Source: Globodera rostochiensis
Lineage: Eukaryota; Nematoda; Chromadorea; Rhabditida; Heteroderidae
NCBI GenBank assembly: GCA_018350325.1
Contig: JAEVLN010000001.1
Location: 3,089,501 to 3,153,500 of the forward strand
DNA length: 64,000 nt
Reading direction: 5' to 3'
A program made the position numbers and the translations under genes. Positions 38,880 through 62,291 of the stretch are shown one piece after another; the first letter of the stretch is position 1; each line of letters opens with the position of its first letter. The notes beneath the pieces are model-generated. The model was not told where the DNA came from and ran no database searches. It saw only the letters and a list, made by a program, of their open reading frames with translations.

Positions 38880-40500
38880 CAAATACCATACCATACAATC
38901 CAATAACACTAATAATACGAAACTAACAATACAATACAATCCAATACAATCCAATACAATCCAATACAATACAATCCAATACAATCCAATCAATCAAATA
39001 CAATCCATACAATACAATCAATACAGTCCAATCAATCAAATACAATGCAATACTAACAATCCAATCAATCAAATACAATGCAATACTAACAATACAATCC
39101 AATACAATCAAATACAATACAATCAAATACAATAAAATCCAATACAATACAATACAATCCAATACAACCCCGTGTAATCCAATACAATCCAGTGTAATCC
39201 AATCCAGTGTAATCCAATACAATCCAGTGTAATCCAATACAAAACCAGTGTAATACAATACAATCCAGTGTAATCCAATCCAGTGTAATCCAATACAATC
39301 CAGTGTAATCCAATACAATCCAGTGTAATCCAATACAATCCAGTGTAATCCAATCCAGTGTAATCCAATACAATCCAGTGTAATCCAATACAATCCAGTG
39401 TAATCCAATACAATCCAGTGTAATCCAATACAATTCAGTGTAATCCAGTGTAATACAATAATCCAATACAATTCAGTGTAATCCAGTGTAAAACAATACA
39501 ATCCAGTGTAATCCAATACAATCCAGTGTAATCCAATACAATCCAGTGTAATCCAGTGTAATTCAGTGTAATCCAATACAAACCAGTGTAATACAATACA
39601 ATCCAGTGTAATCCAATACAATCCAGTGTAATCCAGTCTAATCCAATACAATACAATCAAATACAATAAAAACCAATACAATACAATACAATCCAATACA
39701 ATCCAGTGCAATCCAGTGTAATCCAATACAATACAATCAAATACAATAAAATCCAATACAATACAATACAATCCAGTGTAATCCAATACAATCCAGTGTA
39801 ATCCAATACAATCCAGTGTAATCCAATACAATCCAGTGTAATCCAATACAATCCAGTGTAATCCAATCCAGTGTAATCCAATACAATCCAGTGTAATCCA
39901 ATACAATCCAGTGTAATCCAATACAATCCAGTGTAATCCAATACAATCCAGTGTAATCCAGTGTAATACAATACAATCCAGTGTAATACAATACAATCCA
40001 GTGTAATCCAATACAATCCAGTGTAATCCAATACAAACCAGTGTAATACAATACAATCCAGTGTAATCCAATACAATCCAGTGTAATCCAATACAATCCT
40101 GTGTAATCCAATACAATCCAGTGTAATCCAATACAATCCAGTGTAATCCAGTGTAATACAATACAATCCAGTGTAATACAATACAATCCAGTGTAATCCA
40201 ATACAATCCAGTGTAATCCAGTGTAATCCAATACAAACCAGTGTAATACAATACAATCCAGTGTAATACAATACAATCCAGTGTAATACAATACAATCCA
40301 GTGTAATACAATACAATCCAGTGTAATACAATACAATCCAGTGTAATACAATACAATCCAGTGTAATACAATACAATCCAGTGTAATCCAATACAATCCA
40401 GTGTAATCCAATACAATCCAGTGTAATCCAATACAATCCAGTGTAATCCAATACAATCCAGTGTAATCCAATACAATCCAGGGTAATCCAGTGTAATACC
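38880..40500. repeat. Tandem array of CCAATACAAT / CCAGTGTAAT units
   Basis: About 1.6 kb of 10-bp units alternating mainly as CCAATACAATCCAGTGTAAT. The left part (38935-39170) is less regular and mostly CCAATACAAT. On the minus strand the array lacks stops and opens frames of several hundred codons reading (C/W)ITLDCIGLHWIVLDYTGLYW, a by-product of the repeat. Confidence 0.96.
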
Positions 40501-40523
40501 CTCCCATCAAATGCAAATACCAT

Positions 40524-40697
40524 CACTACATTAAGTACACACCTTTTTTATCGATTTTTTCCAATCAAGTTTTTTCCGATCAAAAATTTTCAGGCGTGAC
40601 TTTGAACATTTTTTAAAAATTATTTTATTAATTTTTTCATTGCGCGGGATTCGAACTATATTTTAAAATGTACCACACTAACCAATCGGCCACAGCA
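40524..40697 (-). mobile_element. tRNA-derived SINE-like element
   Basis: Read on the minus strand: tRNA-like head GCTGTGGCCGATTGGTTAGT (box A) and AGTTCGAATCCCG (box B), an AT-rich body, and a 3' tail TCGATAAAAAAGGTGTGTAC + TTAATGTAGTG. Head and tail are shared with the plus-strand copy at 58687-58964. Confidence 0.6.
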
Positions 40698-41990: not shown

Positions 41991-44492
41991 ATGCAACAAA
42001 ATACTCAACAAGTGCAATCGCCAACGACCGGCCCTCCACAACAACAATATCAACAAATGCAATCGCCGCCAAACGGAACGCAACCGTGGCAGCCGGTTCA
42101 GGGGCATCAACCGCCAGCGCCCGGACCTCCACAACATTGGCAGCCGGTTTTAGGCCAGCAACAACGCCAAATGCTGCCGAGTCCAAATGGGCCTCAACAA
42201 TGGCCGCCTTTGGCCGGTCTTCAGCAAGAACCGGCGAGCTCTCAGAACTGGCAGACGCCCACTTTTGGGCAGCAACAACGTGCGTTCGGACAACAGCAAT
42301 GGCAGCACCACCAGATCGGGGTTCAGCAATGGCAGGCGCCCTCAACAGGCGCGCAACAACCGGCGGTCGGGCATCAGCATTGGCAGTCCCCCTCAACAGT
42401 GCCACAGCAGCAGCATCAGCGACAGCCGACCGGGCTTCAACAATGGCAGAACTTTGCCGCGCTGCCACAACAACAACAACAATGGACCGGCGGTGCCCCA
42501 AACATGGCATTGCAAGGAATGACACTTGCGCAGCAATTCCAGGTCCAGTTTTTTAAATAAAAAAACTGTTTTCCTGTCTAAATTTAAACACTTTTGTTTT
42601 TTTGCAGACAGCAAATCCGGGCTTTGAATTATGCCAGGACGGAACAACAACAGCGGCAGAGATCAACGGAATGGCATTCATGTTTCGTCAAATGCTTCCG
42701 TAAGGCATTTTTTTAAATTTATCTCAAAAATTTTTAAAATTGAAACAAATTTTTAGCCCTGTTCGACTTCGCGCGGAGTTTGTCGACTTTCGAGAGGGCC
42801 AACAAACGGTCAATGGTCCAATGCCGGTTGCAAATGCGGTGATGATCAACGGGGCGGGAGAGCGCTTTGAAGTGTCTGCTTGGAACGACCAAGCTGTGGA
42901 ATTGGTCCGAATGCAACGTGGCGCAATTTACATCATCTACGGTGGACGGGCGTTGGAACCACGCATGCGGGCGAGTGCCTGGTTCAGAATTGGGCTGTCG
43001 TTCAATTCTGCCATCGAGCTGGCAACGGTAGTTTTAAAATTTTGCAATTAATTAATAAACGTATATTTATCAGCAACATCAACAAATGGTTCAACCAATC
43101 GCCCAAGCACCTCCGGCGCCAATTCAACAGGCAGGGGAACAGCCGCAGCAGCAACCGCTCAACGTGAAAAATTTTTTTGTGTTGCTTTATAAATTTGAAT
43201 ATTTTTAAAGGTTCAACCGCCAGTTCAACCACCTCTCGAATCTGCCGCTTCTTCAACAGGCGTTCCACAACAACAACAACAACATCAACAGCAAGAGGAC
43301 GGTCCGAATCGAAATGTGGGAAAATGATTTACTTTGGAAGCGATATGAATTTGCATGTGGTTGTTTTTCTAAGTTGAAAACGAGTTTGAAATTTGGTTTT
43401 TAATTCAATTTTCATTCGAGTTATAAATTTTTGCCTTAATTTGTCTCAAATTCGTTTTACTTTGTTCAATTAAAATTTGAATTTTTTTCAACTGTTAAAC
43501 TCGTAATTTTATTAATTCATTTGAATTCGAGTTATTGTTGTCTCAAATGCGTTTTACATTGTTTAATTAGAATTTGCATTTTAAAATTTTTTGTTCAATT
43601 TTTAAATTTAATTTTATTCGAGTTCCTAATTTGTTCTTAATGTGTCTAATATTTAAGTTTTGCCGCATTTTGTCTCAAATTCGTTTTACTTTGTTCGATT
43701 AAAATTAGAATTTTTAAAAAATTTTTTCACTTGTTAAACACGTAAGTATTAATTCGTTTAATTTGAGTTATTGCCTTAATTTGTCTCAAATTCGTTTTAA
43801 TTTGTTCAATCAGTTTAAAATTTTTATTCAATTTTTAAATTTGTAATTTTATTCGATTTTTAAATTTGTTCTTAATTGTCTAATATTAATTTTAATTTGT
43901 CCATTATAGAATTTATATTTTGCAATATTTTTTTAATTCGAAATTTGATTTGTAATAAATTTTGAATTTAATTTTTTACATTCGCCGGGTATTTGAAGGA
44001 ATTTATTCGTTATAGCGCCCCTACCCGCGTCGTCGTCCTCCGCGCTCTAATTCGTCTGGGCGTCCACCTCAACGCCAGGCCGCGCGGGAGGTACGGGGTC
44101 GAGTCAATGCCGTTTACGGGCATCTCAACCAGCCCCATGCTGTTGAACAACCTGAAATAGAGATAATCCCTGTCCGTGCTGCTCAATCATCATCATCTTC
44201 AGCTAGGGGTAGAACTGGCCGCCGCCCTCCCTCCCCAGATCCAAATTATGAGGTTCCAGGGTTAAACGAACGGCTATTGCAATCAGTGATCACGACCATT
44301 GAGCTCACGTTAAGTCAAGTCGAAAATACAGAAAATTGCCCAATTTGTTCAGAGGCATTTTGGGTGGGTGAACCGGCTGCCTTCCTTCCATGTCTTCACT
44401 TTTTTTGCGGTCATTGTATAAGGCGGTGGCTTAGGCGAACTGGCACCTGCCCACTTTGCAAAGCCAATGTCTTACAACACGGCCATGCTTAG
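41991..44492 (+). CDS. Gln-rich protein with RPA-like OB fold and C-terminal RING finger
   Basis: Exons 41991-42542, 42608-42699, 42757-43027, 43074-43163, 43211-43315 and 44016-44492 join in frame to 528 residues. Residues 1-184 are Gln/Pro-rich. Exon 3 holds an OB fold resembling RPA70 DNA-binding domains: ANAVMINGAGERFEVSAWND then AVELVRMQRGAIYIIYGGRA. More Gln-rich linkers follow. The last exon is Arg/Pro-rich, then a C3HC4 RING: CPIC, CLHFFC, GHC and CPLC. The last exon has no ATG before the RING and begins at a clean TTATAG acceptor in phase 0, which is why I join it. The alternative is read-through to a TGA at about 43327, ending the OB protein and leaving the RING orphaned. ssDNA binding and E3 ligase activity are inferred from the folds. 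It is adjacent to and colinear with the Polinton polymerase; membership in the element is likely but not proven. Confidence 0.7.
43330..44015. repeat. AT-rich tandem repeats in the long last intron
   Basis: About five diverged copies of a roughly 100-bp unit containing TTAATTTGTCTCAAATTCGT + TTTACTTTGTTCAATTAAAATT. Confidence 0.7.
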
Positions 44493-44617
44493 AAAGTGAA
44501 AACACGCAAGGAAGGCAGCCGGTTCAGCCACCCAAAATGCTTCTGAGCAAATTGGGCAATTTTCTGTATTTTCGACTTGGCTTGGCGTGAGCTCGAGGGT
44601 CGTGATCACTGATTGAA
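44280..44617. repeat. Inverted duplication of the RING exon
   Basis: 44280-44403 (RING coding) reappears inverted at about 44491-44617 with roughly 90% identity, separated by about 90 bp. A transcript running past the stop at 44492 would fold into a hairpin of about 120 bp. Confidence 0.88.
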
Positions 44618-45336: not shown

Positions 45337-48300
45337 ATGGCAACGGATAGGCTGTTTGTGATTGAACAAACGACGCCGATGCGCAATGTGCTTCGTAACA
45401 CGAGGGGCGAAATTGCGCATGTGCGTTTTTTGCCGCTCGAGGAGGCGCAGCGTCCCGACCTGGTGATGGAGACGCTGATCCAACATTTGTTGGATCGCGT
45501 CTTACTCGGCCACCCACCACCAATGCTGGTCGGCCTACAGCTCCAGGCCCCGGGCCTTGAGCGCCCATATGTTGTTCGGCTTCGACCGCCTGAACAAAAC
45601 AATGCAGCGGCGCTCGCTGCAGCAATTGAACGGCTCAATGAACAGTCGGCGGCCGGCATTGACTTGATGTCTGGCACCACGCAGACAAAAGTCCTGGCAG
45701 TTTGGCCTTTGGAGCCAAATAGAGATGCCGAAAACCAAGGAGGTGCTGCTATTTTTTTTTAAATTTTTCAAAATGTCAATCTTGGAGGGGGTTGTGACCT
45801 TGGCGATGAACATCACGTCTCCCACAATGTTCAATCCCTGGTCCGTGTTCACAACCCGAATGATCGGTTCTGTCTGGCCCGGGCCATACTTTTGGGATTG
45901 CGCGACCATCGTTGTCGGACAGTGATGCCTGGGAGGGCGGGGCGAGTTGCGTTCCAACTGCATGGCGCACAACAACATCGGCATGGCCCCGAAGCGCGCC
46001 ACTTGCTGAGGAGGGCTGGAATAGCGCGCGACAAGCACCTGTACACCTTGGAGGATGTCGCCATTTTTCAAAATTGGCTTAACAACACCCATGGGGTGGG
46101 CCAAATTCGCTTGGTTGTCTTTGAGAAGGAGAGAGAGTACAGCATTGTCTACAAAGGAGAGGGGTAAGTCATTATTATTTTTTTTGAAAAATTTAAAAAA
46201 TAGGCGCGCGGCACGCTTTAATTTGTGTCTTTTGTTGGAGCGAGGGCATTACAACTATATCGGCCGCATCGAACAGCTATTCAAAGCGCCGCAATATTGT
46301 GTTGATTGTGAGAGACCGGCCTACCGTCTCTTCCACGCTTTTGGCTGCACCGTTGTTTGTCGGCTCTGTCTTCGCTTTGGAACAGACTATCCATGCCAAC
46401 CACAACAGGTTTTTTCGGTTGGCTGTCAAAATTTATGTACTCTCTTTAGCTTCCAAATGGGGAGAGCTCATCCCGTTTGTGTAACGATTGTCAATTTGTG
46501 TTCCCAAATGACAACTGCTTCGCCTATCACCTAACCAACCGTGCTCCGGACCCAATGGATGGTCGAGGTCAACGCCCGTGGCGTCCCATTTGTGAGTGGC
46601 GTCGGGTGTGCCGTGTATGTGGCCGAATTGCATATGCTGACGGCGGCCATCAATGTAATGTACCAATTGGCGCCGGTGGAAATTGTAGACGATGCAAGGG
46701 CCCACATGGGACGGACCAGCCCTGTTTCATCCAACCAATTGGTGACGGCGGTGTTATTGGTGGCGGGGGTGGCGGTGCTCAAGCAGCAGTTGCAAATGGT
46801 CCAAACAACAACGAAGACAACGACAACGACGACGACGACGACGAGGAGGTTGATGAGGAGGACAATTTGCCAATTCGCCTCTGCTTCTTCGACGCGGAGA
46901 CTTCGCAAGAATTACCATTACAGCTGCATGGACGAATTGTTCAAAAACATGTCCCAATGCTCATCATTGCCGAGGTGATTTGCGAGCGATGCATTCGCGC
47001 GGGCATCCGCATCCACGACGGACATGGAAGACGGGCGGCCAACTGTGTTTGCGGTTCGCCAAGGGGGCCACTCATGCGCCAATGGTCTTCACCACCATTT
47101 TTTCCACCCCCCTCGCCGCAGGATGCGCCGACCTACAACCCGAGGCGATTTTATTTCCACTCCTTTGACGACCCAGCCGCCGATCCGGTTGACCAATTTT
47201 TGGACTTTTTAACCAAACATGGCTCAAGAAAAGTGCACACAGTGTGCATTGCCCACAATGGAGGCAAATTCGACTTCCATCTTGTATTGGAAGCGTTGCA
47301 CCGCAGAAGCCTGCCGCCAAAGCGCCTCTGCACAACGGGGCTGAAGATCTACTCCATGAGTCTGCGCGGCAATCACCAACGACGCATCACCTTCAAGGAT
47401 TCCCTGAATTACTTCTTTTGTGAACTCGATGCGCTCGTCAAAAGTTTTGATCTTCCGTCTGATTTGGCAACAGCAAAACCGTTCTTTCCGTATCTCTACA
47501 TCAAGAGACAACATTTGCACGAGCGGCTCCAAGGACTTCCGCCTGCCGAGTTCTACGCGCCGGACACAATGAAACCGGACAAGAGGGCAAAGTTTTTGCG
47601 GTGGTATGAAACTACCAACAATGCATTTCAACTGCGCGAGCAGCTCATCATGTACTGTGTGAACGACGTGGGTATTCTGCGCGAGTCGGTCATCCGTTTT
47701 CGGCGCTTGATTGGCGAACACACCCAGGGGCTGGACCCGTTCCTCGTCGCCTCAACAGCCGCTGGGCTCGCACTGGCAACACTTCGCCGCTGCTTTTTGC
47801 CCCACAATCGGCTCGTCAACTCACCCGAAGGCGGATATCTGCGAGGGCGGCGCGCGTCCGCCGAGTCGCAGCGCTACATTCGCTTCTTTGAGCTGGAACA
47901 CCCGGGGGCTCAAGTGCAGTGCGCGAGCTGGTCTGTTGGTGAGGCACAAATTGAGGACACTGGATACCGAGTGGATGGGCTTTGGCGGCGCCAGCCTCCA
48001 TTACGGCCACTGGCCATTGAGTGGCTCGGCTGTTATTACCATGGTAATTTTTTTAAACTTGTAAAAAAACAACAAAAAAAAGTAGGTTGTCCCGTGTGCT
48101 TTTTGGATCGCCATCAAAGGCTGGCGGCCGGGCGAACAGCGGAAGACTTGTACGAGAGTACAGTGCGACGCCTGTGGGAGTTGGAGCACCTGCACGGGTG
48201 TGAACTGCACGTGGTGTGGGCCTGTGCGTGGAAGGAGCAGCTGCGCCACGATTCGGCACTGAAACGGCGCTACGAAGCGGTGTTTGTGTCTCGCCCGCTG

Positions 48301-49939
48301 GACCCGAGACATGATGCACTCCGCGGTGGGCGCACGGAGCCGTTCAAACTCCACCACGTGTGTGGGCCGGATGAGGAAATTTTGTGCATCGATATTGTCA
48401 GCCTGTATCCTTATGTCATGGTAAAAAAAGTGGAATTTTTTTTACAACTCTAATACTATTAGAAGGTCAATCCGTTTCCGGTCGGCAACCCACGGGTGCT
48501 CACCCGAGAAGTGTTGCTTCAACCACCGGTACCCCCACTGCCCTGGACAGCACCAACAGAGGCGCGCGGACTGTTGTTGGTCCGAGTGTTGGCGCCACGC
48601 GATATTCGAGTGCCGCTGCTCGGCTATCGCACCCCCGATGGGCGATTCACGTTCCCGCTGTGTGCCTGGTGCGCCGACCGACGTCAACAACGCCCGTGTC
48701 GTCATGGTCCGGACAAGAGGGCATGGGTCTCCGCGTACACGCATGTGGAGCTGAACAAGGCGTTGGAGCTCGGCTACCAAGTCACGGACGTCTTTGAAGT
48801 ATATTTATGGTGTACAAAAAAAAAATTGCAAAACAAAAAAAAAAGGTGTGGCACTACGATGAGTGGGACGACACGCTCTTTCGTTCTTACGTCAACACCT
48901 TTGTCGGCCTAAAGGTGCAGGCAAGCGGATGGCCGGATGGCTGTGTGACGGAGGAACAGCGGCGGGACTATCTGGACGCCTTTTGGCAAACGGAGGGCAT
49001 CCGATTGGACCCTGCCAAAATTGCGCCCAATCCGGGCCTTCGCCTAATTGCCAAAACGCTTGCCAACTCGCTTTGGGGAAAATTAGCACAGCGTGTCGGT
49101 CACACCGAGATTCGCTATACGCGCACTCCGGCCGAGTTCCACCGGCTGCTGGTCGACCAAAGCGTAGACAAGCTGGACTTTGTGCACGTCTCCCCGCACA
49201 TGGACCGTTGCGTGGTGCGCAAGAGGCCCGAGTTTTCAAAAGCGGCGCCAACCAACTGTCTCCCCGTCTCAATTTTTGTGACCTCTTATGCGCGCCTACA
49301 CCTATACGGCTACATGGAGCAGGTGCTGACGCTGCAAGGAGCGGAGCTTTTATATTGCGGTAATTTTTTTAAAATGTTTTTTGTACAAAATAACTTAGAC
49401 ACCGACTCCCTCTACTACGTCAAAAAGATGGGTGGTCCTTGTGTGCCGGAGGGAGAGGCGCTGGGCCAGATGAAACGTGAACACTCGGATCGCCGAATCG
49501 TCGAGTTTGTGGCTGGTGGCCCAAAGAACTATGGGATCCGGCATGTGAACAGGGCGGATGGGACTGACGAACGAGCCAACCTCAAAATCCGCAGTTTTCG
49601 CCTCTCCTACGCCGCGCAGCAGTTGCTCAATTTTGATGCAATGAAGAGGCTCACGCTGGCCACCTACAACATTGATGGCCCAATGTTTGTTCTTTTTCCA
49701 AAAAATTTTAAAAAAACGGTTTTAGTGACGACGTGCTGGACAACGACGACGACGACAACGACCTTTACGTGTATGGCGGAGGAGAGCATCGCGCCATCCA
49801 CGTGCCGTTTCCGCAAATTGGGCGCACCGTTTACGCCGACTTGTACACGGAGCAGGCGCACAAGGACTACCGCCCCTTCTACGCAAAGGGGCGCGTTCGA
49901 CCAGGGATGCAAACACGGCCATTTGGCTACAGTGACAAT

Positions 49940-49971
<32 letters not shown>

Positions 49972-50298
49972 CGGGGGAGGGGGGCCGCCGCCGCCGCCCG
50001 GGGGAGGGGGCCGCCGCCGCCGCCCGGGGGAGGGGGGCCGCCGCCGCCGCCGCCGCCCGGGGGAGAGGGGCCGCCGCCGCCGCCGCCCGGGGAAGGGGTT
50101 GACCATTTGCCTTTGCTCAGGCAAGTCGCCAGAGCGAGGCAAAGCGAGGAGCCGTCACCAGCGACGTCCCGCCGGGCTTCGCCTCCGGAACCGCGCGAGG
50201 GAGGCACCCTTCAAACTGGGATTACAAGGCATTCTGATGATGATGGTGATGATGAGCCCGACCCGACCCAACCTGGACATTCCGGATGGTTTTTGTGA
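45337..50298 (+). CDS. polB: Polinton protein-primed DNA polymerase B
   Basis: Replicative polymerase of the transposon. Nine exons (45337-45742, 45788-46163, 46204-46408, 46450-48043, 48086-48420, 48463-48798, 48846-49359, 49399-49684, 49726-50298) separated by 38- to 47-nt introns give about 1,540 codons. An N-terminal NPNDRFCLARAILLGL block and Cys-rich segments precede the exonuclease: CFFDAETSQ (Exo I), AHNGGKFDFHL (Exo II), YCVNDVGIL (Exo III). Polymerase motifs follow: DIVSLYPYV (A), KTLANSLWGKLAQR (B), YCDTDSLYYV (C, restored across an intron) and GGPKNYG. The C-terminus has a (CCG)n/G-rich tract coding Pro/Gly; one G fewer in one tract unit (about 50018) shifts the frame relative to the acidic tail that ends at 50298. 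This may be a real lesion or an assembly error in the homopolymer. Confidence 0.93.
49937..50099. repeat. CCG / G-run tandem tract in polB
   Basis: Five units of (CCG)4-8 CCGGGGGAGGGG(G). Units differ by single G, so the reading frame changes within the tract. Such sequence is prone to slippage in vivo and in sequencing. Confidence 0.9.
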
Positions 50299-50313: not shown

Positions 50314-50865
50314 TTATCTTGTATATTTTGGAATAATTTCAAACAAATGCTCAAATGAACGGTTCATATCATCGAGAGTGCAAACACCGGTGACAATAAC
50401 TTTTCCAGAAATGTAAATGAGACAAGAGGCATTACAGGCTAATATTTTGCAACGTAGGGCCGGGAAAATTGTTGGATCGTAAATGGCTCCTTCTATTGCG
50501 CGCTCAAGCCCTTCCAGATTGATTCGTGAAGAGCACTTTTTCACGCCCACAATGTTTACCACACGCAAATTTTGTACAAAAAATTGTTGTTGTTGTTGTT
50601 GTGTGTGTTGCAATCGTCTCCGGACTCGCTCGGCCATCTTTCTTGACAAACAAGGGTGAGGAACACCGGTGAGCACCACCCGCCCCGAACGAAACACAAG
50701 TGCGGACACCGTTCTCTCTCGACAACGCACACGCATGATGATGGCGTGGAAGCGCCGAGGGTTGAACACCGTGTTAACCCCGTTTTGGGCAATTTCCAAA
50801 TATTGTTGTTTGGTAAAAGAATTTATTGTTTGAAATACAACAGTACAATTGGAAATGGAAACCAT
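50314..50865 (-). CDS. TATA-binding-protein-like protein in the Polinton
   Basis: A 183-residue single-exon frame homologous to the TBP core, which is two direct repeats that form the DNA saddle. Repeat 1: NPRRFHAIIMRVRCRERTVS and ALVFRSGRVVLTGV. Repeat 2: FPALRCKI and CLIYISGKVIVTGV, ending FEHLFEIIPKY. Of the four intercalating Phe of TBP (yeast F99, F116, F190, F207) three are present (NPRRF, LVF, FPAL) and the fourth is Tyr (LIY). A short poly-Gln run sits in the linker. It starts 9 bp after the stop of the PAZ gene on the same strand and ends 15 bp from the convergent polB stop, so it is embedded in the element rather than a host gene. The likely role is transcription initiation at element promoters. 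It is too diverged to be a fresh copy of host tbp-1, though old capture from a host is possible. Confidence 0.87.
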   Translation of the reverse strand: MVSISNCTVVFQTINSFTKQQYLEIAQNGVNTVFNPRRFHAIIMRVRCRERTVSALVFRSGRVVLTGVPHPCLSRKMAERVRRRLQHTQQQQQQFFVQNLRVVNIVGVKKCSSRINLEGLERAIEGAIYDPTIFPALRCKILACNASCLIYISGKVIVTGVCTLDDMNRSFEHLFEIIPKYTR

Positions 50866-50874
50866 CTAAAAAAA

Positions 50875-51594
50875 TCACTCTTTGATCACAACACTGAGCA
50901 CTTCAAGCGGGAAAAATGTTTTGTGATCGCTTCCTCCGTGTTCGACGACGCAAGGCAAATTGGGGTGGCGGAGACGGATGCCATGCTTGATATAGTAATG
51001 CATTCGAACCTAAAATTAGGAAATGGGCAAGAGTTGCCAAAAAAGCATTAACCGTGATGCCCAAGTAGCCGCGATAAGCAGGCGCCAACAGGGCGCCGAG
51101 GATGGAAAGGTCGTTGCATCGGACGCCAAAATTGCGGGTGACAGGGCGCAAATGGGCGGTGCGCAGTTGCACCCCTGAGCGCAGGTATTCGACAATGGCT
51201 CGGCGATGCTCCAAGTTTTGCACGAGGACGTGCAGTTCATGAATGTTGCAACCAAAATGCTGGCAGAGATGTTCAACGAGCGGCTGTGTCCGCTTGTTGC
51301 CGCCACCACAGTTGCAGCGTATCGGCACTGTCTCTTGATCAAACATTTAAACGATAAAAACAAACCGAGGGAACCTAGTTTTTCCTCCTTTTCGTTGTCC
51401 ATTTCCTTTGCCGGCTCGTTGTCCATTTCCTTTGCTTGCTCTTCGTCAATGATTCGTAGCCAGCTAATTTCCTCCTCCTCCTTTTTGTTTTCCTTTGGTT
51501 TTTTGGGAGGAGGGATGTTTTCCTTGTTGCTGTCGTTGTTGTCAATTTCTGGGTAAGCGTTGTGCATCCAATCGGTAGCAAGAATATATTCCAT
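50875..51594 (-). CDS. PAZ-domain protein in the Polinton (no MID/PIWI)
   Basis: Exons 51594-51375, 51327-51053 and 51009-50875 join in frame to 209 residues; introns are 47 and 43 nt, as in polB. Residues 1-75 are charged and Lys/Glu-rich. From about residue 100 on the sequence matches the Argonaute PAZ fold: GVQLRTAHLRPVTRNFGVRC, AYRGYLGIT (about 157-165), then HGIRLRHPNLPCVV (about 174-187) and FFPLEVLSVV (about 197-206), the counterparts of the family's L-R-Y-P-x-L-P-C and L-P-x-E segments. The protein ends three residues later, so there is no MID or PIWI domain and no slicer residues. PAZ domains bind the 3' ends of small RNAs. The first intron donor (GTTCCC) is weak, so the N-terminal join is less sure than the PAZ part. 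No such gene is among the usual Polinton genes I know. Confidence 0.82.
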
Positions 51595-51617: not shown

Positions 51618-52304
51618 ATGAACAAAAATGCAACAATGGATTCGTTCCAGACATTTGAACACGTGGATGTACAGCTTCGTCATCCATTTACAATGATTGT
51701 TTCGGGAAGCACAGGGAGCGGGAAATCGGAATGGATTCTGCGACTTTTGCGCAATTTGGACAAAATGGTCACAGAACCAATTGAACGCATTATTTACTGT
51801 TATGGGGAGCTGAATGCAAATGTGCTAAATCTGCAGCGCGCTGGAAAAATTGGAACCGTGCCAGTGACAGTTCACAACGGGGTGCCACCTGAAGATCAGA
51901 TTCGCGAGCGCGCCAAACTTGGCAGAATGTTGTTAATTTTGGACGATCTTGTAGTGGGGATGAGCAACCATTTTTTGGACACTCTCTTCACTCGGGGTTC
52001 ACACAATTGGGGGGTGAGCGTAATTTTGGTGACACAGCATTTGTTCAACAAGGAACTGCGCGTCGCCCGAAACAATTCCCATTATCTGGTATTGATGAGG
52101 AACCCGGCCGGTGAGCTGCAAACCCGTACCCTGGCAACCCATTTGTTTACGTCGAGGTCTGCCCATTTCTTAGAGGCGTACCGAGATGCTTGTGCCAAAA
52201 ATTTTGGTTACCTACTAGTGGACATGCATCCGCAGAGTCCGGAAGCATTGCGTTTGAGAACACATATATATGATAATTTTGTAACCGTTTATATGCCAAA
52301 ATGA
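51618..52304 (+). CDS. atp: Polinton packaging ATPase (FtsK/HerA-A32 type)
   Basis: 228-residue genome-packaging ATPase. Walker A SGSTGSGKSEW (about residues 30-40), Walker B MLLILDDLVV, and a conserved sensor-like VILVTQHLF. FTRGSHNWGVS and DNFVTVYMP near the end are typical of Maverick ATPases. The ATG at 51636 is an equally good start. The stop overlaps the next ATG by 4 bp (ATGA). Confidence 0.93.
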   Translation: MNKNATMDSFQTFEHVDVQLRHPFTMIVSGSTGSGKSEWILRLLRNLDKMVTEPIERIIYCYGELNANVLNLQRAGKIGTVPVTVHNGVPPEDQIRERAKLGRMLLILDDLVVGMSNHFLDTLFTRGSHNWGVSVILVTQHLFNKELRVARNNSHYLVLMRNPAGELQTRTLATHLFTSRSAHFLEAYRDACAKNFGYLLVDMHPQSPEALRLRTHIYDNFVTVYMPK

Positions 52305-52693: not shown

Positions 52694-53425
52694 ATGCAGC
52701 TCACAAGGCGTTATTTGCTCGTGCCTGAAGAACTTTACGCGAGTTTATCACAACCGTTGGATGGAACCGCTGTAGGTTTGGTCCGTTCACGGATTCAACA
52801 AACCAAAAATGCCGGAGATGAGATCAACTATCAACAGGAGTTTAAGCGTTTGAACAAGTTGTCAAAAGAAGAAGAGGCGCGACCTGTTGACGTTCGTCTA
52901 CAAAATTTGGAGGAGATTTTGCCCAAACAAACAAAAATGCCGCAACCACGCCAACAACGGAAAAGAAGAATTGCAGTTGTCCGCCGCGCAACCAGGCCCA
53001 AAAAGGAGGAGGACAACGAGGATGATGAAGTTTGGGAAGATGCCAGTCCTCGAAACTTGCGTTCAAGCAAAACATCCGCGTCTTCAGAAAGGCCGGATGT
53101 CAATTATCCAATAACCAAATCTGGGATCCTTGAGCACATTCGCCAAAACGCTAGCACATTGGGCGTGTCCGAGGATGGGAAAATTTTGAAAACAGACGGA
53201 AACGTGTACAAAACTAGCAACTTTGAAGACATTGTGGTTTACTTGTTAAACAAAGACAAGCGGAGCCAATTTAAAAACGCTCCCGTTGGGCTCAAGGAGT
53301 TTGTTGAAAAAGCAAAACAAAATGTTTTTTTGAAAAAGCATCTTTTGCCCGAACAGCCTCCCCAATTTGGTAAGGGTTCTTATAAAAAGGCTTTAATAAA
53401 ATTCAAACCAGTGTTATGGATGTAA
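52694..53425 (+). CDS. Conserved Polinton protein of unknown function
   Basis: 243 residues. Charged, likely helical N-terminal half (EINYQQEFKRLNKLSKEEEA), a central acidic patch (EEDNEDDEVWED) after a basic stretch, and a compact C-terminal region with TKSGILEHIRQNA and GVSEDGKILKTDGN. Proteins of this design precede the integrase in many Mavericks, but I know no assigned function. The last 10 bp overlap the integrase start; a TATAAAAAG motif for the integrase lies in its 3' end. Confidence 0.75.
   Translation: MQLTRRYLLVPEELYASLSQPLDGTAVGLVRSRIQQTKNAGDEINYQQEFKRLNKLSKEEEARPVDVRLQNLEEILPKQTKMPQPRQQRKRRIAVVRRATRPKKEEDNEDDEVWEDASPRNLRSSKTSASSERPDVNYPITKSGILEHIRQNASTLGVSEDGKILKTDGNVYKTSNFEDIVVYLLNKDKRSQFKNAPVGLKEFVEKAKQNVFLKKHLLPEQPPQFGKGSYKKALIKFKPVLWM
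53381..53389 (+). promoter_or_regulatory. TATA motif before integrase
   Basis: TATAAAAAG, 26 nt before the integrase ATG, inside the upstream gene. Confidence 0.5.
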
Positions 53426-54513
53426 AAAAATTACTTGAATATTTGTACAAGGATGTAAATTCAGCCGCCTCTTTCACCAGTGTTGAACCTTTGTTGAGAG
53501 AGGCAAAAGCACGCAACAAGCAAATTACTCGCCGTGACGTCCAAAATTTTTTGGCAACCCAGAACGCGTACACTCTCCATCGACAGGCCAAGAGGCGTTA
53601 TCCCCGTTTGCCAACACTAGCCCCCGGGCTGCACACTGAATGGCAAGCAGATTTGGCAATGTTTGACCGTCTTTCCCGTCAAAACCGCGGGTACAAATAT
53701 TTGCTTGTGTGCATCGACACGCTGAGTAGACAGATTTTTGTTGAACCGGTCAAATCAAAGTCGAGCAAAGACATGATTTTTGCCTTTGGTCAAATATTTG
53801 CAAGATCAAAATATGTCCCCTGGAAATTGTTGACCGACCAAGGCAAAGAATTTACAGCCAAAGCTGTTCAAATCTATTTTCGGTCAAAAGATGTTGAACA
53901 TTTTTGTATGTTCACCTCTCCTCAGTTCCATGCTGGAATGGCTGAGAGAGCAAATAGAAGTATCAAAGAACGGTTGTATCGCTATTTCACCGAGCGCAAC
54001 ACACAAAAGTGGATAGGCGTTGTGCAACAGTTGGTCAAAGCTATCAATCACTCGTATAACTCGAGCATCGGTATGAGACCTGTGGACGTCAATTTTAAAA
54101 ATGCTGAAGCTCTTAGACAAAAATTATATGACAACGCTGCCAAAATTCCCAGACGAGGGCCAAAATTTAAGGTGGGTGACCGAGTGCGCATTGAAAAGTA
54201 CAAGCATGTGTTCCAAAAGGGATACTTGCCCCGGTTCACCGTCGAAGTGTTCACCGTGGCGGAAGTGCATAGCGAACGCTCGCCTGTTGTGTACCGCCTC
54301 CGTGACGACAAAAACGAGATAATAAAAGGGTGGTTTTACGCAAATGATCTTTGTAAAACATTGGAAAACAAGGAACAAATGTACGACATTGAAAAAATTA
54401 TCAAAAAAAAGAAACAACACGGCGTGGACCATGTCTTTGTAAAATGGAAAGGATTCAATGCTCGCTTCAACAGCTGGATTCCTGCGAGCTCCGTTACGTG
54501 GAAAAATATATAA
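53416..54513 (+). CDS. int: Polinton integrase (rve) with chromodomain
   Basis: 365-residue retroviral-type integrase. Catalytic DDE: D in EWQADLAMFDR (about residue 77), D in LLTDQGKEF (about 138), E in HAGMAERANRSIKE (about 175). A helical N-terminal region precedes it. A C-terminal chromodomain reads YDIEKIIKKKKQHGVDHVFV + KWKGFNARFNSWIPAS, which would bind histone-tail marks and steer insertion. Intact; typical Maverick length and order. Confidence 0.96.
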   Translation: MDVKKLLEYLYKDVNSAASFTSVEPLLREAKARNKQITRRDVQNFLATQNAYTLHRQAKRRYPRLPTLAPGLHTEWQADLAMFDRLSRQNRGYKYLLVCIDTLSRQIFVEPVKSKSSKDMIFAFGQIFARSKYVPWKLLTDQGKEFTAKAVQIYFRSKDVEHFCMFTSPQFHAGMAERANRSIKERLYRYFTERNTQKWIGVVQQLVKAINHSYNSSIGMRPVDVNFKNAEALRQKLYDNAAKIPRRGPKFKVGDRVRIEKYKHVFQKGYLPRFTVEVFTVAEVHSERSPVVYRLRDDKNEIIKGWFYANDLCKTLENKEQMYDIEKIIKKKKQHGVDHVFVKWKGFNARFNSWIPASSVTWKNI

Positions 54514-55738: not shown

Positions 55739-55741
55739 TCA

Positions 55742-56215
55742 ATGATGAACACCATTGAGATTGACAAAACTCTGTCCGGAAACCCAGCCACACGCCACTC
55801 ATATATTGGTTGTTTTGCTGCAGATCAGATACCCCCAGCGGGTTCAATTGCAAAATTTCCCCATTGCATGGTGTTGAACATTGATCCAAGCAACTCCCGG
55901 GGTTCCCACTGGGTTACTGTTTATTGTGCGTCCCAAAACAGCTTGGAATATTATGATTCGCTGGGGATTTGGCCACCACCCAGTGTTTTCATTGTAGATT
56001 ATTTGAGCCGGTTTGGCCAAATTCGTTACAATAGACTTTTGTTGCAGTCTGCCAAATCAGATGCGTGTGGGCGTCATGTAATTTTCTTTTTGTATAACCG
56101 ATGTCTGGGGGTACCCTTTGAAAAATTGGTCCACTTTTTACACTTTACAAAAACATCGCCAGATACTATTGTCAACACATTTGTGAAAAGGGTAATCTTT
56201 AAACATTATAAATAG
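55742..56215 (+). CDS. pro: Polinton adenain-like cysteine protease
   Basis: 157-residue C5/Ulp1-type maturation protease. Catalytic His in RGSHWVTVYC (about residue 60), acidic partner in LEYYDSLGIWP, oxyanion Gln region near LLQSAKSDACGRHVIFFLYN with nucleophile Cys (about residue 119). It lies 3 bp after the upstream stop. Substrates are presumably the Gly-Gly containing virion proteins at 52301 and 56242. Confidence 0.93.
   Translation: MMNTIEIDKTLSGNPATRHSYIGCFAADQIPPAGSIAKFPHCMVLNIDPSNSRGSHWVTVYCASQNSLEYYDSLGIWPPPSVFIVDYLSRFGQIRYNRLLLQSAKSDACGRHVIFFLYNRCLGVPFEKLVHFLHFTKTSPDTIVNTFVKRVIFKHYK
56207..56214 (+). promoter_or_regulatory. TATA motif before 56242 gene
   Basis: TATAAATA overlapping the protease stop, 27 nt before the next ATG. 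Confidence 0.5.
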
Positions 56216-56241: not shown

Positions 56242-56745
56242 ATGCATGTTGATTTTGACCCCCTCCTGGTGGATTGGTCCACATTTGCAGAAGCGTCGCC
56301 CGAGTTGTTGCTCCAGTTTGGTGGCTACAACGTCTTTCGCGGCATTCCATACCAGCGAGGTGGTGGAGTGGGCTCCGTGTTTAGAAGCCTCATGCGATAT
56401 CTGCTGCCTATTGGAAAGCAAATTGGTGCCGCTATTGGTCGACAGGGACTTGAAAGTGGGAATCGGGCCCTAACAAATGTGCTGGAAGGCAAAGATATAA
56501 AAGAATCGCTTATCACCGAAAGCAAATCGGGTCTTGCAAATCTCCTCGAGAAGGCAGCTAGCAATCTCAATGCACAAAAAGGGCAAGGATTTGACTTTAA
56601 ACGATATCGCAAAGATGCCGCTACCGGACAATTTGGAAAGGGCCGTGGAAAAAATATAAATAAGCTCCAATCAACAATTGGACCACCAGTGGTTGGAAAA
56701 GCCAAAAATAAAAAACTTCGAGTTGATTTCTTGGGAACTTATTGA
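56242..56745 (+). CDS. Polinton virion protein, adenovirus pVI/pX-like
   Basis: 167 residues. QRGGGVGSVFRSLMRYLLPI followed by a GKQIGAAIGRQGLESGNRAL amphipathic stretch is the pattern of Maverick proteins placed between protease and major capsid. The C-terminus is basic (KDAATGQFGKGRGKNINKLQ, KAKNKK). The RGGG site fits protease processing. A role as internal cement or membrane-lytic protein is by analogy only. Confidence 0.7.
   Translation: MHVDFDPLLVDWSTFAEASPELLLQFGGYNVFRGIPYQRGGGVGSVFRSLMRYLLPIGKQIGAAIGRQGLESGNRALTNVLEGKDIKESLITESKSGLANLLEKAASNLNAQKGQGFDFKRYRKDAATGQFGKGRGKNINKLQSTIGPPVVGKAKNKKLRVDFLGTY
56655..56662 (+). promoter_or_regulatory. TATA motif upstream of major capsid gene
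   Basis: TATAAATA inside the preceding coding region, 85 nt before the MCP ATG; the weakest of the series by position. Confidence 0.35.
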
Positions 56746-56747
56746 AA

Positions 56748-58073
56748 ATGACGTGTCCTCAAAAAATTAGTGAAAACAGTCCAATTGCAATAAACAGTGC
56801 ATTAAACATTTTTTCTGTACCCCCCACCAATGTTTCTGTTGTCCGTTCTTTCTTTCGCCAAGTGCTCCCGCTTGCCACAATTACCCAGGAATCTCCCTAC
56901 CTCTTTCGTCTCTATAGCGACAATTTATGGAGCGATTTATCCCGAATTTACCTTTATCTTGAACTGTCCATTGAAAAACTAGGAGAAAAAGATAAATGGG
57001 TTGCAATTGAAAATAAAGACGTAAATGTAAGTGCCATTCAGGGAATTGGGCAAACTTTTGTTCAACAACTCAAAGTCAATGTTGGGAACACCGAGGTTTA
57101 TGACAGTGGCAATTTGTACCCCTTCAAAGCATACATCACTAATGAACTGAGTTTTCCAAGCAATGCAAAAAAACATTTTCTTGGATCCATCGGATATCGG
57201 CATAGCAAAACACATAACAATGAGAATGATGAAGGGTTCAAAGAACGTTGCAAAATATTTCAAGGTGGGAAAAAGGCTCAATTCCTTTCGCGTGTAGACT
57301 TTGACCTGGGAAATCAGGAACTATACCTTCTAAATAATTTGGATTTGTTGTTCACTATTTACAAGGCCAAAGATTCCTTTCTCTTGCAAACCCTTTTGGG
57401 CAACGATACAAACAAATACCGGTTGGCGGTTCATGACGTAAAAATTTACGCAAAGATGATTGAAGTGCAGCCATCCTTTAATATGAGCTTGTACAAGTCG
57501 TTGGAAAAACAGCCCGCAACTTATGCTGTTCGAAAAACGGAAATCAAATCGTCGTATATAAGCGCTGGACGCTATGAGTTTGAATACAACGTTTTTAGTG
57601 CAACAATTCCGCGTCGAATGACGATTGCAATGGTTGAAAATGCGGCATTCAACGGCGATTACAAGACGACACCGTTTAAATTTGAACCTTTTGACGTTCG
57701 CGAAATTTCTGTACATGCAGGTGGAATGATATATCCCGTTGTACCCTACAAACTTAATTTTGGTGAAAACTTTTTTGTTAGAGCATTTGTAGACACGTAT
57801 GAGGCATTGGGAATGACAAACTCTGAAAGATCATTTGACATTTCCATGGAAAAATTCAAAAATGGCTGGACATTTTTTGTAATCCCATTAACTTCCACGC
57901 TGGACGACAGTTGCGGTTTTGAGCTATTACGAAGCGGAACAACATGCATTCGTGCCACGTTCAACACTCCTATACCAAAAGGAGGAGTGGAAATGATTGT
58001 CCTTGGAGAATTTGATCAGATGATCATGGTTGATTATAATCGTCACATTGTATCTGACTCAAAAATTTTATAA
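56748..58073 (+). CDS. mcp: Polinton major capsid protein (double jelly-roll)
   Basis: 441 residues from ATG 56748, 2 nt after the previous stop. Typical MCP features for nematode Mavericks: N-terminal YLFRLYSDNLWSDLSRIYLY, VYDSGNLYPFKAYITNELSF, DFDLGNQELYLLNNLDLLFT, RLAVHDVKIYAKMIEVQPSF, RYEFEYNVFSATIPRRMTIA and C-terminal TPIPKGGVEMIVLGEFDQMI + MVDYNRHI. Frame intact. Would form the hexameric capsomers of an icosahedral particle; double jelly-roll fold is inferred from homology, not visible in sequence. Confidence 0.88.
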   Translation: MTCPQKISENSPIAINSALNIFSVPPTNVSVVRSFFRQVLPLATITQESPYLFRLYSDNLWSDLSRIYLYLELSIEKLGEKDKWVAIENKDVNVSAIQGIGQTFVQQLKVNVGNTEVYDSGNLYPFKAYITNELSFPSNAKKHFLGSIGYRHSKTHNNENDEGFKERCKIFQGGKKAQFLSRVDFDLGNQELYLLNNLDLLFTIYKAKDSFLLQTLLGNDTNKYRLAVHDVKIYAKMIEVQPSFNMSLYKSLEKQPATYAVRKTEIKSSYISAGRYEFEYNVFSATIPRRMTIAMVENAAFNGDYKTTPFKFEPFDVREISVHAGGMIYPVVPYKLNFGENFFVRAFVDTYEALGMTNSERSFDISMEKFKNGWTFFVIPLTSTLDDSCGFELLRSGTTCIRATFNTPIPKGGVEMIVLGEFDQMIMVDYNRHIVSDSKIL

Positions 58074-58686: not shown

Positions 58687-58964
58687 GCTGTGGCCAGGTG
58701 GTTGTGTCCTGGATTGGTAAAGGTTCGAGTCCCGACCAGGAAAAATAATTTTATAAATTACAAAAAAATGTCTCGGCGCTCTCTCCCAATCGTCAAAGCC
58801 TTTTGATTGGGAAAAAAATCGATAAAATTTTATAAATTATAAAAAAAGTCGCGCAGAGCGATAAGTAAGAGACGCAGACTTTAATGTCTCTGCGCTCTCT
58901 CCCAATCGTCAAACCCTTTTGATTGGAAAAAAATCGATAAAAAAGGTGTGTACTTAATGTAGTG
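58687..58964 (+). mobile_element. tRNA-derived SINE-like element
   Basis: Head GCTGTGGCCAGGTGGTTGTG with box B GGTTCGAGTCCC, an internal tandem duplication (GCGCTCTCTCCCAATCGTCA at 58774 and 58889), and the tail TCGATAAAAAAGGTGTGTAC + TTAATGTAGTG shared with the inverted copy at 40524-40697. Its 3' end abuts the interrupted polymerase pseudogene exactly. Confidence 0.6.
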
Positions 58965-61900
58965 GCAACAAACTCCATAATATCGCTCTCCGCATACTCC
59001 CTAGTCATTTCCCCCAAAAATTTCCCCTCTTTCAAAGGACAGAGACCCTTCGGGTGGGTGAAGATGAGGGAGTCTGAATGAAAAATTATATATTTTTTTA
59101 TAATTTTTATGTTTTACCCGTGTCGCAATACAACAATTTGCACCCCTCGGTCCTGTACACCTGCTCCATGTAATCATACAGTTTAATTCGGGCAGCACTC
59201 GTTGTCCTAAATAAAAATTTATTCCTTAGTTTTTTTCTAAAAAACAAACCATAACGACAAAAAGATATTCGACACACTGTGTTCTTTGATGAACTCCACC
59301 TTCTTCGCATAGTTAACACGAACCACCCCCGGCATGATCATTGTTTCCATGGTTATTTCTAACGTGTCATCCCCATCGAGCTTCAGATACCTCTCCATGT
59401 CGCTCACTATCTCCGTCATCGAAAGCGTGTTCCTCATGGAAAACTTCCCCCACAAACTATTTAGACCCAATTTCGCAATCAACCTTAGCCCCGGATTATA
59501 TCTGATGTTGTCATACTCCAACACAATGTTATACTTTGCTCTATACAAATCGACAAACGCCCTCTTCTCTTCTTCAGTCTTCACTTCTGGGGGCCACCCC
59601 GACGCCTCAACTTTAACCCTCAAAAACATCCTGACATACTCTTTGAACAACTGGCTGTCAAACTCCTCAAAGTGGTACGCCCGATAAAATCGGATGACCT
59701 TGTACCCCAGCTCCAACGCCTTCCTCAACTCAATCGATGTGAAAGTCCCCAACAGCGCCCTTTCTTCATCATTATGTTCACATTTTTTCATATTTTTCGC
59801 CAAAACAAAACTCTTCTTTGGGATCTTGGCACAAATCCCACAATTCGCAAACAATAACATATCATCCGCATGAATCGACAAAAGGGGGTACAACATATTC
59901 TTCGGGGGGACGACTTTCACTTTCAACAATCCGTCATATGGCACATGGTCGGGCTCAGTCCTTAAAAAATCGGCGTCTTATGGGAATGAAATATTTTTCG
60001 TACCAATTCACAATATAATTCGGGCTTTGGACAATTTTCTTCACATCACATTCCTAAAAATTTGAATTTTACCCAGACATAAAACTTAGGTGCAAGCACT
60101 TACCCAGACATAAACATATGTCCAGGTTAGCTGTTTTATGCTTAATAAACACTTACCCAGACATAAAACATATGTCCAGGTTAGCTGTTTCTTAAACATT
60201 TTGGGAAGATGTTTAATAAACACTTACCCAAACTTGCTCCACTGAGAAATTCTTGAACGATGCTCTCAAACGATCTATTTTATACTCCGTCCTTCCCAAA
60301 TTCTCCTCAGCACACAGGCCATTCGGCCCGATTGTCCACGGCATAAAACATCTCTCACACCCATGCCATGCGCAGCCCTTGAAAAACTTTTAACAGAATT
60401 TGACGTTGTTTTTACCTGAAACTCAATTATCCTCTTCTGAGCCCCAATCACGCAATCCACTTTGAAACCCCCAAATTTTATTTCGCCCCCGTTCAAAGCA
60501 TGTCTGACTTTCACCCCCTCCCTGTACGCCAACCATTCAAAATATTGTGTCGCAATTCTGCTCTGCTTATCCGCCTTTTCATAACCCCCCTCCGGAACGA
60601 TCGGGATGTGTCTCTCCTTTAAAAACTTTGCCCTGAACACTTTCATCACTACCCCCGCAATGGTCACGCTGTTTTTGACCACGTCCATGTCTTTCGTTAT
60701 TCCCAAAAACAATTTCCTGAACTTCAACACCGCCGCCATCAAAATCGCCACATCGCTCTCACAATAAATCCTGAGCTGCTCACCTAAATTTTTAATTGTT
60801 TTGTTGCTGAATTTTAAAAGATAATACCCAGTTCAAACTCCGTCTCATAGTTCTCGTTGTACCATTTCTCCAATTTTGCACACGTCTCCTCTCTTAAGTT
60901 GTCAGGACAATAATCGGTGAGCGGTGGGAGGTGGGGGAGCCTGATCCCGAAGTTGGCGTTCTTGTTGTATTTGTGGGGGAAATACAACTTGGCCGGAATG
61001 TCCAACTCCAGAGTCTTGGGCAGCTCGGCCAAAGGATTTTGACTGAGGAGCCAAAAATCCCTAAAGAACACTTTTTTCGACGTGATCTGGTAAATTTTTT
61101 GATCTGCCATCAACAATTCCGTCAAGAACCCTTTATTTGTCAGCTCTCTCAAAACAAAATGAGAATCAAACCGGACTAAAATTTTTAATGTCATTAAAAA
61201 TCTCAGCTTTTTTTTTACCTGCATAATGTGCAAATGCCACGGTTTCAAATCCTTTAAACCCCATAATCCAATCCACAAAACTGCTCATAGGATCAATAAC
61301 CCCCTCTGCCATCGACCACGTCATCCGTTTTGGCCCTTCCCCACAAATTTCACATTCCTTCTCCTCTCCGACACAAACGCTGCATGTCACTGCCGCAGAA
61401 ACCAGATTTGGCAGATGCTCACCATTCAACACCGTCGTCTCAAGATCGTATGCCACAATACGGTACCGAGGGAGGTTAGGACGAATTTTGGTCTTTTTAA
61501 TGAAACATTGCCTCTCCGGATGGTATACCATACACCGCTTGCAAAATTTCTCCCCACAAGTGTGAATGTCGCGCGTTCTATACAATGCTCCACATTTTTT
61601 GCACTTCTTACACAGTTGACACACTTTCTTCTTATGCGCCTCAAAACACTCCTCATTACGAAATTTTCGGTTGCATTCTTCGCAATAAATCTCAACTCCT
61701 TCGTCTACACACGGAAAGCCGAACCCCATACGGCAACAATTTTTACAGCGCTCCTTACACTCCATTCGATGCTTTTCCGGTCGGTCGTAGGTTACCTCAC
61801 AACTCACGCAGAAATTCCTTACTTTAAAGAACTGGGTTACGCTCTTCATCCCGTCCCAATGCCCATTGTTCGATATCACACACACTTCATATTTTCGCAT

Positions 61901-62291
61901 ACCTTGCCCTTTAAACGTTGGCTTAAGGCCCGCAACCTGAAATTTTTTTTGAAAAAATGCCCTATCGTTTTTCCCATACCAGGTCGAAAGCCACGATTCG
62001 ATACATGTCCGGAAACTCCTTGTCCCAAAAAGCCTGAACGACTCCCAGATGCCCAAGCCCATAAGATTTCGCATTCCCGACCATTCCTACGTTTCCCATC
62101 AAATCCAAGACCATTTCCCTTTGCTTTTTGTCCGTTTTAATCAGATAACGGAATTTATCCTCCGTAATCCCCTTATTGATCATTTGATAGGTTCGGGCAA
62201 GCTCCAGGGCATAAAACAAACTAAATTTCCCCTTGGGCGTAGGAAGACGACCCAACTCCTTAACTTCGACCAAAGGATTGAAGCGAACCAT
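58965..62291 (-). pseudogene. Decayed second Polinton DNA polymerase B
   Basis: Starts MVRFNPLVEVKELG at 62291 and runs through several short GT-AG introns. Zinc-rich region (CVSCEVTYDRPEKHRMECKE, CKKCGALYRTRDIHTCGEKF), Exo I YDLETTV, Exo II AHYAG ... FDSHFVL, Exo III YCESDVAIL, then YNPGLRLIAKLGLNSLWGKF (motif B) and LLYCDTDSLIF (motif C across an intron). Motif A (DxxSLYP) is missing: after ECDVKKIVQSPN the text jumps to YIVNWYEKY, about 60 residues short, and the frame is then broken near 59965. The 3' end stops at EFVA where the SINE-like element begins. It is a different Polinton lineage from the intact polymerase, and catalytically dead. Confidence 0.85.
60069..60235. repeat. Tandem repeat of a splice-donor segment in the polB pseudogene
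   Basis: Three copies of CACTTACCCAGACATAAA(C)ATATGTCCAGG. On the minus strand each carries a TCTGG|GTAAGTG donor. Confidence 0.75.

What the first reader, a model, noticed from the sequence alone, without database searches (positions are those of the whole stretch)
50875..51594. A Polinton encodes a PAZ-only protein
Seen: a three-exon gene inside an otherwise typical Polinton ends in a PAZ-like sequence (HGIRLRHPNLPCVV, FFPLEVLSVV) and stops before any MID/PIWI. Known: Argonaute PAZ domains grip small-RNA 3' ends, and small-RNA pathways silence transposons in nematodes. Inference: the protein may sequester siRNA/piRNA/22G ends or compete with Argonautes, i.e. a transposon-borne silencing suppressor. 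I know of no Polinton described with a PAZ gene.
Basis: partly seen in the sequence, partly recalled or inferred. Interest (0 to 1): 0.92.

Follow-up and report, generated by a model that had tools for sequence, protein, structure and literature searches.

The report
Virus-like transposons carrying Argonaute PAZ genes
In a potato cyst nematode, dozens of virus-like DNA transposons carry a gene for one lone piece of the Argonaute silencing protein, predicted to fold as the part that grips small-RNA ends, so it is likely a tool the transposon uses against the worm's gene-silencing defence.

The parts
51375..51594 (-). PAZ gene exon 1, acidic N-terminus; start motif MEYILATDWMHNAYPE
   Evidence: alignment to P0091; motif recurs in Heterodera proteins P0095-P0097; low model confidence
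51053..51334 (-). PAZ gene exon 2, N-terminal half of the PAZ domain
   Evidence: no Pfam hit alone; in the modelled PAZ fold
50875..51009 (-). PAZ gene exon 3 with stop, C-terminal half of the PAZ domain
   Evidence: PF02170 E 4.1e-5
50314..50865 (-). TBP-like gene, starts 9 nt after the PAZ stop
   Evidence: PF00352 E 4.7e-27, two stretches
46450..50102 (+). type-B DNA polymerase in two open frames (46450-48453, 48798-50102), convergent to the PAZ gene
   Evidence: PF03175 E 6.3e-18 and 0.0032
51618..52304 (+). A32-like packaging ATPase
   Evidence: PF04665 E 7.9e-6
53386..54513 (+). integrase with C-terminal chromodomain
   Evidence: PF00665 E 1.5e-12, PF00385 E 6.7e-6
55739..56215 (+). adenain-like cysteine protease
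   Evidence: profile A7 against PDB: S273R E 6.5e-7, adenain E 0.003
56727..58073 (+). putative major capsid protein (name inferred from size and place)
   Evidence: 86 matches in the genome; no Pfam hit, no PDB hit
40524..40560 (.). left terminal inverted repeat
   Evidence: 37 nt, 100% complementary to the right one
58928..58964 (.). right terminal inverted repeat

Best explanation
The gene encodes a protein predicted to fold as a lone Argonaute PAZ domain, it recurs beside the polymerase gene in dozens of this nematode's Polintons, and it likely acts as a silencing suppressor that would hold the 3' ends of host small RNAs. Shown here: gene structure, PAZ homology, linkage to Polintons, absence of PIWI, purifying selection. 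Predicted: the fold. Inferred: capture of a PAZ from a nematode Argonaute, loss of MID and PIWI, binding of siRNA, 22G or piRNA 3' ends or competition with Argonautes for loading, so that the element's transcripts escape silencing while it replicates.
Against: No binding, expression or silencing data. F294 aligns to a variable column and Y311 is His in 30 of 33; P0089 has Tyr in place of the 316 His. Window gene below the Pfam cut-off. The gene's place beside polB would also fit a replication role. Not every Polinton has it: PAZ within 15 kb of 38 of 55 capsid, 38 of 51 ATPase, 26 of 52 polB loci. Some copies carry stops or frame breaks.
Confidence: 0.5

Rival explanations
1. The lone PAZ is a replication or packaging factor: it would bind 3' ends of the element's own DNA during protein-primed replication.
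For: Always beside and convergent to polB where polB is near (24 of 24); type-B polymerase present. A review passage says DNA can bind the PAZ domain of AGO2 (PMC6361761).
Against: Polintons of other animals are not known to need it (recall); several polB and capsid loci here have no PAZ within 15 kb, though some are fragments.
Confidence: 0.22
2. The protein is a protein-protein module: it would bind Argonaute partners or work with the adjacent TBP-like protein in transcription of the element, without gripping RNA.
For: TBP-like gene 9 nt downstream; Heterodera gene models join PAZ and TBP sequences; pocket only partly conserved.
Against: Only 12 of 41 merged TBP hits have a Polinton-type PAZ within 10 kb; pocket positions 271, 315, 316 and 339 are kept in character.
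Confidence: 0.13
3. It directs silencing instead of blocking it, for instance against competing elements.
For: PAZ is a guide-handling domain (recall).
Against: No MID or PIWI to hold a 5' end or cut.
Confidence: 0.1
4. Chance resemblance, or the remnant of a host Argonaute that happens to lie in a Polinton.
For: The window gene alone is below the Pfam cut-off.
Against: Dozens of diverged copies with purifying selection and the same position; relatives in three genera.
Confidence: 0.03

Closest known systems
PAZ domain of eukaryotic Argonautes (PF02170; hAgo2 8thq, hAgo1 1si2)
   Same: fold and several pocket positions
   Different: stands alone without N, MID and PIWI domains; about 20% identity; carried by a transposon
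Nematode Mavericks/Polintons with cargo (wosp proteases, krma kinases, fusogen; Widen, as told in PMC10680173, passage seen)
   Same: nematode Polintons that carry genes beyond the core
   Different: no PAZ gene in the passage seen; the original paper was not held
Viral suppressors of RNA silencing that bind small RNA (p19, B2 and others; recalled)
   Same: proposed mode of action: hold small RNA away from Argonaute
   Different: those folds are unrelated and none is a captured Argonaute PAZ (recall); the viral structure library gave 0 matches at E <= 0.001 for the type A model

Membership tests
Polinton/Maverick | type-B DNA polymerase, integrase, A32-like ATPase | tested here: met
Polinton/Maverick | adenain-like protease | tested here: met
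   profile match to S273R and adenain; Pfam alone E 0.17
Polinton/Maverick | double jelly-roll capsid protein | tested here: inconclusive
   conserved 448-aa protein in the expected place, no Pfam or PDB match; not folded
Polinton/Maverick | terminal inverted repeats | tested here: met
   37 nt, 100%
Polinton/Maverick | 6-bp target-site duplication | tested here: inconclusive
   none seen by eye beside the repeats
PAZ domain (PF02170) | score over Pfam's curated cut-off | tested here: inconclusive
   window protein 22.0 bits and exon 3 23.9 bits, under 28.8; relative L010 37.6 bits, over it
PAZ domain (PF02170) | PAZ fold | tested here: met
PAZ domain (PF02170) | 3'-end pocket residues | tested here: inconclusive
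   271, 315, 316, 339 kept in character in 33 chosen sequences; 294 and 311 not
Argonaute | MID and PIWI domains after PAZ | tested here: not met
   the frame stops at 50875; no PIWI match within 5 kb of any of the 42 Polinton-linked PAZ loci
Suppressor of RNA silencing | binds small RNA or Argonaute and lowers silencing | not testable with these tools
   needs assays

The most novel reading that the evidence does not exclude
Polintons of plant-parasitic nematodes have captured an Argonaute's PAZ domain and kept it as a core gene: a stand-alone small-RNA 3'-end binder used as an anti-silencing weapon, the first PAZ known in any virus or transposon.
Probability: 0.4. Interest if true: 0.95.

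Novelty: new variant of a known kind. Interest (0 to 1): 0.82.

Why it matters
Nematodes silence transposons with several small-RNA pathways, yet anti-silencing genes of their transposons are hardly known (recall). A conserved, selected, stand-alone PAZ in virus-like transposons is a concrete and testable candidate, and would show an element turning a piece of the host's own Argonaute against it. It also offers a minimal natural PAZ for biochemistry.

Tried and rejected
Led nowhere: the viral-contig scan with A1 gave 52 pattern matches and no confirmed relative. The viral structure library gave no match at E <= 0.001 for the type A model; the window model was not searched there. The prokaryote-type promoter and terminator scan equalled its shuffles. 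The putative capsid profile found nothing in the PDB. A Dicer PAZ did not appear among the rows shown, which does not exclude it. Pfam PAZ alone gave 24 matches in the genome and missed the window gene; protein queries were needed.

Rejected: chance hit or truncated host Argonaute (recurrence, selection, position). Also rejected: that every Polinton has the gene (38 of 55 capsid, 38 of 51 ATPase, 26 of 52 polB loci have a PAZ within 15 kb). I merged the rows (86; 100; 56; 38; 58) into loci by hand before counting, so totals are approximate and include fragments. Of the 21 best capsid rows, 20 have a PAZ within 15 kb; the exception is C65:62900. The binomial figure printed treats copies as independent and is not used. 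Capture from a WAGO-like Argonaute is only a lead: the tree has 120 columns after trimming, partial host exons, support 89 for the clade of Polinton PAZs, and that clade includes C5:2617645, a locus with neither marker nor PIWI hit; WAGO-like is my label.

Literature: searches (20 of 32 listed; 3 of 3; 25 of 247; 15 of 35; 6 of 6; 11 of 11; 3 of 3; 12 of 746; 9 of 9) and 93 (10 of 259). Of the 6 papers with 'PAZ' and 'Polinton' as whole words, all were opened at the passages: in 5 'Paz' is a place or an author, in 1 a domain check of host PIWI genes. PMC6361761, which holds both terms, treats them in separate sections. PMC11071308 holds neither PAZ nor Argonaute; PMC11118728 names Maverick once and PAZ never. 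Not held: PMC11426020 and PMC10748475, the nematode polinton paper; the Widen paper was not found. An earlier description there cannot be excluded.

Full report
What is there. The window lies in contig C1 of a 92.6 Mb genome. A relative of the gene elsewhere in this genome, 188 aa, is 100% identical to a Globodera rostochiensis protein, A0A914I439, and the window gene's own product is in UniRef as A0A914HFS0, 211 aa, 'PAZ domain-containing protein' of the same species. The start motif ILATDWxxNAYPE recurs in Heterodera proteins, so exon 1 is conserved. The element is bounded by 37-nt perfect inverted repeats 18.4 kb apart and holds polB, integrase with chromodomain, A32-like ATPase, adenain-like protease and a putative capsid gene, a RING-finger ORF and a TBP-like gene.

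Recurrence. Pfam PAZ finds 24 matches in the genome. With three protein queries at E <= 0.01 the union is 58 loci. Forty-two lie within 15 kb of a capsid, ATPase or polB match and have no PIWI match within 5 kb; ten have PIWI within 5 kb and no Polinton marker; none has both; six have neither. Of these six, C44:3708 has an integrase match about 2 kb away, and C26:664094 has a PAZ frame identical to that of the Polinton-linked copy C13:618284. The marker zone is 2.9% of the genome; copies are not independent. All 24 PAZ loci with polB within 6 kb are convergent to it. At least four types exist: A (about 170-220 aa with an acidic tail), B (about 117-150 aa), the window type with introns, and C (L033-L038), interrupted at about the same place as the window gene.

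Selection. Of 19 Nei-Gojobori comparisons between copies, 17 give omega 0.09-0.21, one 0.52 (11 changes in all) and one pair is identical; the window's exons 2 and 3 against the C14 copy give 0.21 and 0.15. Pairs overlap in ancestry.

Pocket. I aligned 33 chosen proteins (20 of this genome, 13 of the database hits; type C and P0089 were not among them) with the hAgo2 PAZ. Position 316 is His in 33, 315 Arg/Lys in 33, 271 His/Tyr in 33, 339 Tyr/Phe in 33, and 311 is His in 30 and Tyr in 3. P0089 has Tyr at 316. Passages of PMC5896489 name H271, R315, H316 and Y311 as contacts of the 3' overhang; a passage of PMC7265490 names F294 and L339 as the pocket core. F294 falls on a variable column with a conserved Tyr near by, and positions 277-294 are not aligned reliably. 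So binding is plausible, not shown.

Distribution. Every hit with an organism name (90 proteins; 7; 75; only the 7986 best candidates were scored) is from Globodera, Heterodera or Meloidogyne; the others come from metagenome sources without organism. Linkage to Polintons outside this genome was tested only through Heterodera gene models: P0096 joins PAZ exon 2 to a TBP-like part that aligns to the window's TBP gene at 58% identity, which implies the same gene order. For Meloidogyne the context is untested. IMG/VR gave no relative, the viral structure library no match.

Known or new. The protein name in UniRef is automatic; no paper seen describes a PAZ gene in a Polinton (searches and passages listed under Tried and rejected), but the main nematode Polinton papers could not be read.

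Mechanism. A protein that is only the 3'-end-binding part of Argonaute, kept under selection by an element that its host would silence with small RNAs, is best read as a decoy or competitor. Shown: gene, linkage, selection. Predicted: fold. Inferred: binding, suppression, origin.

Noticed in passing
window 50314-50865 (-): TBP-like gene (PF00352 E 4.7e-27) that starts 9 nt after the PAZ stop, with TTTTTTTAG before its ATG, like a nematode trans-splice site (recall); a 73% identical copy lies in C14 beside another PAZ. 12 of 41 merged TBP hits in the genome have a Polinton-type PAZ within 10 kb.
   Followed up: partly
window 44016-44492 (+): RING-finger ORF (PF13639 E 1.2e-12) inside the inverted repeats, with a 123-nt inverted repeat at 44280-44615 over its 3' part.
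   Followed up: no
window 59237-62086 (-): A second polymerase remnant just outside the right inverted repeat; 59237-59977 hits PF03175 with E 2.9e-14. Probably another Polinton.
   Followed up: no
window 38923-40506 (-): A 527-aa open frame of WITLDCIGLH-like repeats beside the left inverted repeat; looks like a microsatellite, not a gene.
   Followed up: no
L033-L038; capsid matches in C11, C12, C16, C19, C45: A further Polinton group whose capsid frame has an internal TAG in most copies and whose PAZ is interrupted near the site of the window gene's second intron.
   Followed up: partly
L013:4303-4584: Heterodera proteins P0074, P0086 and P0087 have an N-terminal part of about 100 residues that matches a stretch upstream of the type B PAZ in L013, so this type may have a further exon or a neighbour gene.
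   Followed up: no
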